Below, piece by piece: positions 1-2,606 of a stretch of 12,132 nt of DNA. The stretch covers positions 1 through 12,132 of the forward strand of contig JAGAKC010000127.1 in NCBI GenBank assembly GCA_017848155.1, read 5' to 3'. Below the pieces are notes generated by a model. That model was not told the origin of the DNA. It searched no databases and saw nothing but the letters and a program-made list of their open reading frames with translations. Source of the DNA: Oscillospiraceae bacterium. GTDB taxonomy: Bacteria; Bacillota; Clostridia; Oscillospirales; Ruminococcaceae. A program made the translations under genes and the position numbers. Position 1 is the stretch's first letter. Each line of letters begins with the position of its first letter.

Positions 1-309
1 AATTTATTCGATAACGCTTGCTATTGGATAAAAGATTCTAAAAAAAACAACCAACAAATTTCAATATCTCTTGAAGAAAATTCAGATCCAACTAGAATAA
101 CTGTTGTAGTAAGTGACACAGGAAGTGGTATACTTACGGATGAAATGGAAAAAATATTCGTTCCAGGAATAACTTCAAAGCCAAATGGGATTGGAATGGG
201 GTTGGTCATTGTTTCAGAAATTTTAAGTTATTATAAAGGTAAAATCGGTGTACGTGTACCTGGCGATTTAGATGGTGCAACATTTGTGTTTGATATACCT
301 AGGAAGTGA
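1..309 (+). CDS. Sensor histidine kinase, C-terminal ATPase domain (5' end outside window)
   Basis: Reading from base 1, the frame gives 102 residues ending at TGA 307-309. They form the GHKL/HATPase_c ATP-binding fold of a histidine kinase. Visible boxes: N box NLFDNA at the first residues, G1 box DTGSG (residues 39-43), F-box-like IFVPGITSK (52-60), and G2 box NGIGMGL (62-68), then a closing strand pair (TFVFDIP). ATP-binding residues look intact, so the kinase half is probably active. The dimerisation/His-phosphotransfer and sensor domains lie to the left of the window, so the signal and the phosphoacceptor His cannot be seen. The receiver gene begins 11 bases after this stop, so the two are almost certainly one operon and kinase/receiver partners (inference). 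The sequence is AT-rich, like the two genes that follow. A MORC/MutL-like GHKL ATPase is less likely, because the G1/F/G2 spacing is kinase-like. Confidence 0.88.
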   Translation, partial: NLFDNACYWIKDSKKNNQQISISLEENSDPTRITVVVSDTGSGILTDEMEKIFVPGITSKPNGIGMGLVIVSEILSYYKGKIGVRVPGDLDGATFVFDIPRK

Positions 310-320
310 GGTTTATAATA

Positions 321-1406
321 TTGAAAATACTAATTATAGAAGATAACCCTTTAACAGTAAAAGGTATTGTTGATTTTGCATCTGACAATAATCATTCCTG
401 TGATGTTTATAATTTCCAAGATTTCACCAAAAAAATAGTTGACTATTCGCCCGACATTCTAATTTTAGATTGGAAAAATGATGTCGATGATTATGATGCA
501 GGGAATCCAATATTTGAGTATATTCTCACGCATCAATTTATGCCGTTGATTATTTTTTCGGCCATAGCCCAAACTATTGAAATTCCTTCTGAAATTAAGG
601 ATTTGCCATTGGTAAATATTCTTGAAAAAGGAGATGAGCAACCAGTTATTGATTGTATAACAAATTGGGAACCATATATTTCATCTATCAATGAACTACG
701 TTCTGATATGAATAAAGCTTTAATAGAATCTACAAAGGCAATTGGTAGTTTTATGAGTGTTTCTACACCTCAGAATGATGTTATCAAATATATGTTAAAT
801 AAAAGAGCAAATCAATATTTTGACAACGATGCTGTTGGTGAAAATCCTCCTGCGTGGATTGAATATTTGTATCCCCCTATGAAATCACATCTGTTGGTTT
901 CTGATGTTTTAAGAGTAATTAGCAAAGAAAGTGATCATAGTCTACCTGGTCAACCAGAAGAATATTATGTTGTCCTAACACCTAGTTGTGATATGGCAAA
1001 CACTACTGGTCCTGTTATGATTTTGTTGGCACATTGCACTAGTAAAGGAAAGTTTTCAGATGTTAGTCTTGGTAGTAGTTCAATAGATTCTGGCAAGGGA
1101 AAAGATAAGGTTGATAAAGTGAAAGCACAATTAAATTATGGTTATAACAAAGCAAATGTCGCATTACCAGGATTACCCAACATAATACCTTATCTTACAA
1201 TCAATCTAAAGGATATTATACAAGTGTTGAATACAGAGATTGCCTTGTCTTATGAACAAGCTAATGAAACTCATAAATATTATAGAGTAGCATCAATCAA
1301 CAGTCCTTTTAGAGAGCAAATTGTATGGGCACATATGATTAATTCATGCAGACCAGGAATGCCAAATAGAGATGTAGAAACTTGGGCTAAAGGAATATTA
1401 GTGTGA
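321..1406 (+). CDS. Receiver-domain (response regulator) protein with an unrecognised C-terminal domain
   Basis: I start this at TTG 321, which gives MKILIIEDN, the canonical first strand of a receiver domain, 8 bases after GAGGT (308-312). A GTG at 306 is in frame but adds residues outside the fold. Of 361 residues, about 1-120 are a CheY-like receiver: acidic pair E7/D8, phosphoacceptor D50 in LILDW, switch Ser S80 in IIFSA, and conserved Lys K103 in LEKGD. So it should accept phosphate from the upstream kinase. Residues from about 125 to 361 match no DNA-binding output domain I recognise (no clear HTH). They contain a hydrophobic strand ending in VVLTPSCDMAN (217-227), a Gly/Ser/Lys-rich loop (249-268), and a C-terminal NSCRPGMPNRDVETWA segment (341-356). 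C223, H238, C239 and C343 could be metal ligands or catalytic, but this is only a guess. The stop overlaps the methyltransferase start, suggesting translational coupling. The C-terminal domain is the likely output or effector; function unknown. Confidence 0.8.
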   Translation: MKILIIEDNPLTVKGIVDFASDNNHSCDVYNFQDFTKKIVDYSPDILILDWKNDVDDYDAGNPIFEYILTHQFMPLIIFSAIAQTIEIPSEIKDLPLVNILEKGDEQPVIDCITNWEPYISSINELRSDMNKALIESTKAIGSFMSVSTPQNDVIKYMLNKRANQYFDNDAVGENPPAWIEYLYPPMKSHLLVSDVLRVISKESDHSLPGQPEEYYVVLTPSCDMANTTGPVMILLAHCTSKGKFSDVSLGSSSIDSGKGKDKVDKVKAQLNYGYNKANVALPGLPNIIPYLTINLKDIIQVLNTEIALSYEQANETHKYYRVASINSPFREQIVWAHMINSCRPGMPNRDVETWAKGILV

Positions 1407-2446
1407 TGAATGCAATTGACTTTTTCTGTGGCGGCGGAGGAATGACGCGTGGGTTATTAGACGCTGGAATAGATGTCATTTGGGGGTTGGATTCAAATCC
1501 ATCGTGCCAAAATACATATGAACACAATAATAATATTCCATATTTATGTAGGGATATTTTAAATGTTCATGGAAATGAACTCATTGAAGAATATCCAATT
1601 CTTGAAGATAATGACGAATTACTGATGGTTGGATGCGCACCATGCCAGCCGTTTAGTGTTCTTAGGCAAGGCCCAGCTAACGAACATATTTCCGTAAATT
1701 TACTTAATGAGTTTGGAAGAATTGTTGCAGATATACTACCAGCCCACATACTTGTAGAAAATGTTCCTGGCTTGAGAGGCAAGGGTGAAGAGGTGTTGAA
1801 TCAGTTTTTAGATTTAATTACTGATTTAGGATATGATTATGTATCAAGAGTTGTAAATGCTAAAGATTATGGGGTTCCACAAAACAGAAGACGTTTTATT
1901 CTAATCGCATCTAGACGTTTCGTCCCTATTTTTCCTGAACCAACACACGGAAGAGATCTTTTGCCATATGAAACAGTCTATAATGCTATTCATCACTACC
2001 CTCCTATAGAAGCTGGTCAGGAAGATGAACATTTTTTTAATCATCGTTCAGCTGGTCTTGCTCAAATTACTCTTGAGAGAATCCAAGCAACGCCCCACGA
2101 CGGAGGAGGCAGATTGGATTGGCCAGAACATTTGGTGTTAAATTGTCATCAAAATGGTTTTGTAGGGCATTCTGACGTGTATGGAAGAATGTCATGGAAT
2201 AGCGTTTCTCCTACTCTCACTGCAAAATGCTATAGTATTTCCAATGGAAGATTTGGGCATCCAGAACAGGATAGAGCAATATCGTTAAGAGAAGCAGCAG
2301 CATTACAAACTTTTCCAGATAATTATGAGTTTTTTGGTTCATTAACCGAAATAGGCAAACAAATCGGTAATGCTGTTCCTGTTTTATTGGCTCGACAAAT
2401 TGGAGAATATGTACTTGAACAACATAATGTGCTGAATCAGGAGTGA
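1406..2446 (+). CDS. DNA (cytosine-5-)-methyltransferase (Dcm/type II family)
   Basis: This enzyme transfers a methyl group from S-adenosylmethionine to cytosine C5 in a specific DNA site. ATG 1406 overlaps the previous stop (TGATG), with AGGA 11 bases upstream. The 346 residues carry the ordered C5-MTase motifs: I IDFFCGGGG (4-12, SAM binding), IV GCAPCQPFS with catalytic C80, VI VENVPG (117-122), VIII QNRRR (159-163), IX SPTLTAK (268-274), X GKQIGNAVP (317-325). The target-recognition region between VIII and IX is short (about 100 residues) and I cannot name the recognised site. Everything needed for activity is present. No restriction endonuclease follows: the gene is the last one before the tRNA fragment that seems to end the element. 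A cognate nuclease could lie to the left of the window, or the methyltransferase may act as self/non-self marking for the kinase-receiver pair (inference). AT-rich composition and context suggest horizontal transfer. Confidence 0.95.
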   Translation: MNAIDFFCGGGGMTRGLLDAGIDVIWGLDSNPSCQNTYEHNNNIPYLCRDILNVHGNELIEEYPILEDNDELLMVGCAPCQPFSVLRQGPANEHISVNLLNEFGRIVADILPAHILVENVPGLRGKGEEVLNQFLDLITDLGYDYVSRVVNAKDYGVPQNRRRFILIASRRFVPIFPEPTHGRDLLPYETVYNAIHHYPPIEAGQEDEHFFNHRSAGLAQITLERIQATPHDGGGRLDWPEHLVLNCHQNGFVGHSDVYGRMSWNSVSPTLTAKCYSISNGRFGHPEQDRAISLREAAALQTFPDNYEFFGSLTEIGKQIGNAVPVLLARQIGEYVLEQHNVLNQE

Positions 2447-2506: not shown

Positions 2507-2556
2507 TTAGGTTCTGGCGAGCAATCGTGCAGGTTCAAGTCCTGTCACCCGTACCA
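2507..2556 (+). other. 3' part of tRNA-Leu(UAG): candidate attachment site (att) of an integrated element
   Basis: The stretch reads as the second half of a class II tRNA: T33 and anticodon TAG (2508-2510), G37, anticodon 3' stem TCTGG (2513-2517), variable arm CGA-GCAA-TCG (2518-2527), T stem GCAGG/CCTGT (2529-2533 and 2541-2545) enclosing TTCAAGT, acceptor 3' strand CACCCGT (2546-2552), discriminator A and encoded CCA (2554-2556). The long variable arm and TAG anticodon fit tRNA-Leu. Upstream bases have no matching acceptor strand (ACGGGTG or GCGGGTG), no D arm, and do not pair with TCTGG. So this is a fragment, not a gene. Integrases of the tyrosine recombinase class often cross over at the anticodon loop and leave such a displaced 3' end (known). 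Here it coincides with the AT-rich to GC-richer switch. The fragment and its terminator would be the original chromosomal end (inference). Confidence 0.8.
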
Positions 2557-2559
2557 GCG

Positions 2560-2606
2560 TTCCGCTGGACCTCATTCGGATAAGGTCCGGCGGAATCATC
2601 ATTTTA
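2560..2606 (+). terminator. Intrinsic-terminator-like hairpin after the tRNA-Leu fragment
   Basis: TTCCGCTGGACCT (2560-2572) pairs with AGGTCCGGCGGAA (2583-2595): 13 pairs with one G-T wobble, 10-base loop. The following T-rich run (ATCATCATTTT) is weak. Placed three bases after the CCA, it is probably the ancestral terminator of the tRNA gene, and it now also closes the methyltransferase operon. Confidence 0.65.

What the first reader, a model, noticed from the sequence alone, without database searches (positions are those of the whole stretch)
1..2446. Histidine kinase, receiver-domain protein and C5-cytosine methyltransferase in one translationally coupled operon
The sequence shows a kinase ATPase domain, a receiver protein with intact D8/D50/S80/K103, and an intact C5 methyltransferase, with gaps of 11 bases and a TGATG overlap. 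Ordinary two-component systems pair with transcription factors, not DNA methyltransferases, and here the receiver has no recognisable DNA-binding domain. Phosphorelay-based antiphage systems are known (Detocs), and comparative-genomics work has proposed unusual kinase/receiver families in conflict systems (I recall Pfam Response_reg_2 and HEF_HK, not checked). A plausible reading is a defence module where phosphorylation switches an effector and the methyltransferase marks self DNA. This is inference.
Basis: partly seen in the sequence, partly recalled or inferred. Interest (0 to 1): 0.75.

Follow-up and report, generated by a model that had tools for sequence, protein, structure and literature searches.

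The report
Two-component pair linked to DNA methyltransferase
A bacterial signalling pair (a kinase and the protein it should switch) sits beside a DNA-methylating enzyme, and the switched half is predicted to fold like a bacterial self-poisoning toxin, so this may be a signal-controlled defence module rather than ordinary gene regulation.

The parts
1..309 (+). C-terminal catalytic (HATPase_c) part of a GHKL-type histidine kinase; N-terminus cut off by the contig end
   Evidence: PF02518 7.4e-12; aligns to the last ~100 aa of 716-734 aa kinases L002-L004, L035, L037-L040; N, D, G1 and G2 box residues present
310..320 (+). 11-base intergenic gap kinase/receiver
321..1406 (+). response regulator, 361 aa: REC domain (res ~1-124) plus MazF/CcdB-fold output domain (res ~189-346)
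738..1403 (+). stretch modelled alone: helical linker and output domain; near-invariant Cys223, Asp224, Arg344, Gly346
   Evidence: AF2 pLDDT 92.1, pTM 0.84; conservation over 33 receivers
1404..1408 (+). TGATG stop/start overlap receiver/methyltransferase
   Evidence: 4-base overlaps in L035 and, read from the ORFs, L055 and L057
1406..2446 (+). C5-cytosine DNA methyltransferase, 346 aa, intact
   Evidence: PF00145 6.7e-54; TIGR00675 140.4 bits, cut-off 100.65; sequence relatives in the PDB include Dnmt1, M.HaeIII and M.HhaI
2507..2556 (+). 3' 50 nt of a tRNA-Leu gene (5' 33 nt absent): attachment-site remnant at the end of an integrated element
   Evidence: 49/50 identical to tRNA-Leu of G706 and G716; the 33 nt before it 7/33 and 6/33; no intact tRNA called in the window
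2559..2596 (+). terminator-like hairpin after the tRNA remnant: start of the chromosomal flank
   Evidence: -24.5 kcal/mol, z -4.5

Best explanation
A mobile, phosphorelay-gated effector module coupled to DNA modification. Shown or strongly supported by sequence: (1) the receiver comes with a kinase directly upstream; full-length kinases have two ATPase folds, an N-terminal MORC/MutL-type GHKL domain and a C-terminal histidine-kinase core with an invariant phospho-His; (2) the receiver keeps the phospho-acceptor Asp50 and carries a predicted MazF/CcdB-fold output domain; (3) a DNA methyltransferase is the usual third gene, often with Vsr, and I recognised no restriction nuclease family that recurs; (4) members lie on plasmids, viral contigs and, in the window, an island end. 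Inferred: the MORC-like domain acts as the intracellular sensor of DNA state (unmodified, invading or damaged DNA), it controls autophosphorylation, phosphate passes to Asp50, and this releases or activates the toxin-fold domain, which poisons the infected or plasmid-freed cell through a surface around Cys223-Asp224 and Arg344-x-Gly346; the methyltransferase marks resident DNA as self. The effector replaces the restriction enzyme in the compact loci.
Against: No activity is shown. hhalign finds no sequence-level link to MazF (prob 0.2), and the positions expected to hold MazF's catalytic Arg and Thr are not conserved (equivalence set by topology, inferred), so RNase activity is doubtful. The fold could serve as a binding module. 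K103, usual for REC signalling, is conserved in only 16/33. Foldseek E-values are marginal (0 at or below 1e-3). MTase partners come in four orders and two catalytic families, so no fixed operon is conserved. L037, L060 and L092 showed no adjacent MTase. L002, L004 and L038 do contain nuclease genes beside the trio. The fold was modelled for the window's own branch only; distant receivers share it by profile similarity.
Confidence: 0.45

Rival explanations
1. Regulatory accessory of an R-M system: the kinase-receiver pair does not kill; the output domain binds DNA, RNA or protein and tunes expression or activity of the methyltransferase (and of restriction genes where present).
Against: In the compact loci I recognised no recurring restriction gene to regulate (read by eye); no known DNA-binding domain in the output part; an output fold shared with poisons is an odd choice for a regulator.
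Confidence: 0.3
2. CcdB-like protein poison: the output domain is a MazF/CcdB-fold inhibitor of a host or phage protein and not a nuclease; Arg344-x-Gly346, just after the last helix, occupies the place of CcdB's C-terminal contact residues.
Against: No sequence similarity known; target unknown; the positional equivalence is inferred from aligned ranges only.
Confidence: 0.15
3. Ordinary orphan two-component system that happens to sit next to an orphan methyltransferase; no functional link.
For: Rare and scattered: the full-length receiver was found only in the window's own genome among 398 phylum genomes, and in own plus G877 among 394 order genomes; gene order varies.
Against: About 80-fold local enrichment of MTases and repeated overlap of receiver and MTase genes in distant relatives; independent published linkage statistics (PMC8011034).
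Confidence: 0.05

Closest known systems
Response_reg_2 (PF19192) / HEF_HK (PF19191) two-component-like system with R-M genes, PMC8011034
   Same: N-terminal HATPase_c_3 plus phospho-His region plus C-terminal HATPase_c kinase; adjacent receiver protein; C5 MTase, Vsr and N6/N4 MTase neighbours; 13 of 120 listed relatives of the window receiver carry a precomputed PF19192
   Different: The window receiver itself does not match PF19192; 5 of 33 aligned relatives do at E<=0.01 (best 7e-7, bits not shown), and the two whose bits I read (25.2, 26.8) lie just below the 27-bit cut-off. No PF19191 hit in five scanned kinases paired with this receiver. Receiver 361 aa against a 600-aa query in that paper. 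The paper does not mention MazF or an output domain
MazF/PemK and CcdB toxin superfamily
   Same: Predicted fold of the output domain
   Different: No profile-level sequence similarity to MazF; catalytic Arg/Thr not conserved; fused to a REC domain; I did not look for antitoxin genes
MORC/paraMORC ATPases of R-M systems, PMC2292703
   Same: N-terminal GHKL ATPase, neighbourhood of Dcm, Vsr and nucleases
   Different: Here fused to a histidine-kinase core and paired with a receiver; that text has no hit for receiver, response regulator or two-component
Detocs (recalled; one search listed no paper holding the name)
   Same: Phosphorelay used by a defence system
   Different: Components not compared; recalled only
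DISARM (locus L004 only)
   Same: DrmB-like gene upstream of MTase-kinase-receiver in Fibrobacter L004 (PADLOC DrmB 6.6e-81)
   Different: No DISARM gene in the window; PADLOC was run on few genes of the other loci

Membership tests
Response_reg_2/HEF_HK system | Receiver matches PF19192 over its cut-off | tested here: not met
   Window receiver: no match at E<=1. Relatives are mixed: 13 of 120 carry a precomputed PF19192, 5 of 33 match at E<=0.01, P0033 25.2 and P0043 26.8 bits against 27
Response_reg_2/HEF_HK system | Kinase matches PF19191 | tested here: inconclusive
   The window lacks that region. No match in relatives' kinases L004, L035, L037, L055, L057; L099, a kinase with another receiver, matches weakly (18.1 bits, cut-off 24.1)
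Response_reg_2/HEF_HK system | Adjacent kinase with N-terminal HATPase_c_3 and C-terminal HATPase_c | tested here: met
   In relatives: L004, L035, L037, L055, L057; in the window only the C-terminal part is present
Response_reg_2/HEF_HK system | Linkage to C5 methyltransferase | tested here: met
   Window; 24 of 31 relatives
MazF/CcdB superfamily | Fold | tested here: met
MazF/CcdB superfamily | Sequence profile similarity to PemK/MazF | tested here: not met
   hhalign prob 0.2 against 30 PF02452 proteins; no Pfam hit
MazF/CcdB superfamily | MazF catalytic Arg before strand 2 and Thr after strand 3 | tested here: not met
   No conserved Arg at 213-216, no conserved Thr at 239-242 in 33 receivers; equivalence inferred from topology, catalytic residues recalled
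Two-component response regulator | REC fold with phospho-acceptor Asp | tested here: met
Two-component response regulator | Phosphotransfer from the neighbouring kinase | not testable with these tools
   Needs biochemistry
Type II R-M system | Cognate restriction endonuclease | tested here: inconclusive
   None seen downstream in the window; upstream lost; no recurring nuclease recognised near relatives (by eye), but nucleases in L002, L004, L038
Detocs | Detocs kinase, receiver and effector genes | not tested
   No Detocs sequences compared; the rows shown by the PADLOC scans name none (the MTase table shows 25 of 62)

The most novel reading that the evidence does not exclude
A restriction-modification system without a restriction enzyme: a two-component phosphorelay, sensed by a MORC-like ATPase fused to the kinase, gates a receiver-fused MazF/CcdB-fold poison with a new Cys-Asp/Arg-x-Gly site, while the linked methyltransferase marks self DNA. 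It would be the first response regulator known to me whose output domain is of the MazF/CcdB toxin fold (paper searches showed none: 20 of 95, 4 of 4 and 0 papers listed; only listings read, apart from passages of PMC2701414).
Probability: 0.3. Interest if true: 0.85.

Novelty: new variant of a known kind. Interest (0 to 1): 0.62.

Why it matters
Kinase/receiver pairs next to DNA methyltransferases have been known from gene maps since 2021 (PMC8011034), with the receiver's output left undescribed there. A predicted toxin-fold output gives a direct, testable answer, would join two-component signalling to the toxin-antitoxin world, and would explain how a methyltransferase can be kept as a self mark without a restriction enzyme. 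The conserved residues named here make the test a matter of a few point mutants.

Tried and rejected
PF19192 over 398 phylum genomes: 0 hits and 0 of 14 controls, so uninformative. Receiver profile over 297 family genomes: 35 genomes matched, but only the window's own over full length; the others matched within the REC part. Window receiver against plasmids: none; L035 receiver against plasmids: one partial match, against phages: none; L037 kinase-receiver DNA against E. coli genomes: none. The whole-receiver fold search was filled by REC domains, so the output part was modelled alone. Profile comparison with MazF failed. Clustering of neighbours within 6 kb gave, read by eye, phage genes, recombinases and the N6/N4 methyltransferase, several clusters unidentified. 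Of the 51 kinases without this receiver by my distance rule, 30 have a same-strand ORF of 250 aa or more directly downstream; 12 such ORFs were printed in part and several look like other receiver-like proteins; 16 of 51 have an MTase under a looser distance rule; they are not in my 31. The viral fold library was never reached. The upstream part of the window's operon is not on another contig of G000; one search shows the receiver cluster on a 21,861-base contig that I could not fetch. An intact copy of the tRNA was not found in G000. Rfam: no match in the window.

Rows dropped before counts: L069 and L085 (near duplicates of L068 and L084); L035 was represented by L056; the window was left out of the 31 pairs because its kinase is cut; L089 has a receiver hit overlapping its kinase by more than my rule allowed, so it stands among the 51 although it is probably a pair with an MTase beside it; it is among the 33 receivers.

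Full report
OBSERVATION. The window is the start of contig C37 of a 77% complete, 498-contig assembly. Three genes run left to right: a kinase catalytic domain (1-309), a 361-residue receiver protein (321-1406) and a C5 methyltransferase (1406-2446), separated by 11 bases and by a TGATG overlap. Only the last 102 residues of the kinase are present; the missing part was not found on another contig. Next to the operon, 2507-2556 is the 3' 50 nt of a tRNA-Leu gene (49/50 to two congeners, while the preceding 33 nt match only 7/33 and 6/33), followed by a strong hairpin. The usual reading is an attachment site at the right end of an integrated element (inference from the known habit of integrases); what lies to the right looks like plain chromosome: GNAT, Rsm22-like methyltransferase, Sfp-like transferase and, by reading, transporter and glycan genes.

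CENSUS. A kinase profile run on viral contigs returned 79 loci. With ten other loci (window included) there were 84 kinase ORFs of at least 550 aa; after dropping two duplicates, 31 are followed by this receiver family under my distance rule and 51 are not (one of the 51, L089, is probably a pair). Of the 31, 24 have a C5 MTase within 1.5 kb (10 convergent, 7 upstream same strand, 6 downstream same strand, of which L002 and L003 have one on both sides, 1 divergent). Four of the other seven (L059, L077, L078, L093) have a PF01555 N6/N4 methyltransferase directly upstream; L037, L060 and L092 showed none. Density is 26 MTase ORFs in 90.1 kb within 1.5 kb and 1 in 274.1 kb beyond. None of these loci was fetched through a methyltransferase; but the MTase profile was trained on seven MTases of such loci, the window's included, so it may miss unlinked MTases of other kinds. 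A Vsr-profile match lies within 2 kb in 9 of 31 (Pfam-confirmed in L056 and L057, and in L055 just outside that distance). BLASTP clustering of neighbours within 6 kb showed no recurring family that I recognised as a nuclease (clusters read by eye, some unidentified). The 51 other kinases are a mixed group; 30 have a same-strand ORF of 250 aa or more directly downstream, and one such pair (L099) is close to the published Response_reg_2/HEF_HK type (25.5 and 18.1 bits, both below cut-off).

RESIDUES. In the 31 kinases the phospho-His, the first-ATPase Glu, Asn, Asp, Gly, Gly, Met and the second-ATPase N-box are 31/31; Glu after His is 26/31. In 33 receivers Asp50 is 33/33, S/T80 33/33, K103 16/33; in the output part Cys223 33/33, Gly346 33/33, Arg344 32/33, Asp224 30/33, and nothing else exceeds 28.

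MECHANISM. Shown: pairing, conservation of the phosphorelay residues, DNA-methyltransferase linkage, carriage by plasmids and viral contigs, toxin-like predicted fold. Inferred: DNA-state sensing by the MORC-like ATPase, phosphate-gated release of a poison, self-marking by the methyltransferase. I put 0.45 on a gated effector with protective or addictive role, 0.3 on a regulator of modification or restriction, 0.15 on a CcdB-like protein inhibitor as a separately stated form of effector.

KNOWN WORK. PMC8011034 (parts 1-5 of 7 read, plus term searches of the whole main text; [quoted passage not shown] The window family is a divergent branch: same architecture, window protein without the Pfam match, some relatives with it. 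PMC2292703 (part 2 and a term search read) describes paraMORCs without receivers. PMC12137116 (passages) shows a Shedu nuclease with a GHKL ATPase domain that restricts phage and needs both activities, a precedent for a GHKL ATPase proposed to control an effector. PMC2701414 (passages) and PMC12839542 (passages) gave nothing on this architecture. Searches for a receiver-fused MazF/PemK/CcdB listed no paper with that topic among the titles and abstracts shown (20 of 95, 4 of 4, 0); only listings were read, apart from PMC2701414.

VERDICT. Observation confirmed; interpretation partly supported; association known since 2021, output fold not found in the literature I could search. New variant of a known kind.

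Noticed in passing
window 2507-2596: 3' half of a tRNA-Leu gene with terminator-like hairpin, marking the likely end of an integrated element whose cargo includes the operon; intact copy not found in the assembly.
   Followed up: yes
window 2560-2595 and G000 contigs C283, C426, C429: The hairpin sequence recurs in several places of the same genome, in C429 three times about 90 bases apart; in C283 it follows a tRNA-Leu, in L052 and L053 no tRNA was called; a repeated palindromic element.
   Followed up: partly
window 1-309: The kinase fragment weakly matches PADLOC candidate models PDC-M43B (4.5e-5).
   Followed up: no
L035 14912-15886: A cold-shock domain fused to a Shedu-type DUF4263 domain on the same viral contig, 2.7 kb beyond the methyltransferase.
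   Followed up: no
L099, L102, L112, L127 and other loci: GHKL-histidine kinases of the same kind, several of them followed by different, longer or unrelated receiver-like proteins: the kinase seems to be a module with exchangeable outputs.
   Followed up: partly
P0066: Its receiver domain matches a PADLOC SduA (Shedu) model (residues 2-112, 4.8e-8), hinting at Shedu nucleases with a REC domain in front.
   Followed up: no
L059, L077, L078, L093 (upstream of the kinase): N6_N4 methyltransferases stand in the place of the C5 methyltransferase beside the same kinase-receiver pair.
   Followed up: partly
L055 9751-11106: A transposase-like gene (IS110 type by reading) lies between kinase and receiver on the opposite strand.
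   Followed up: no
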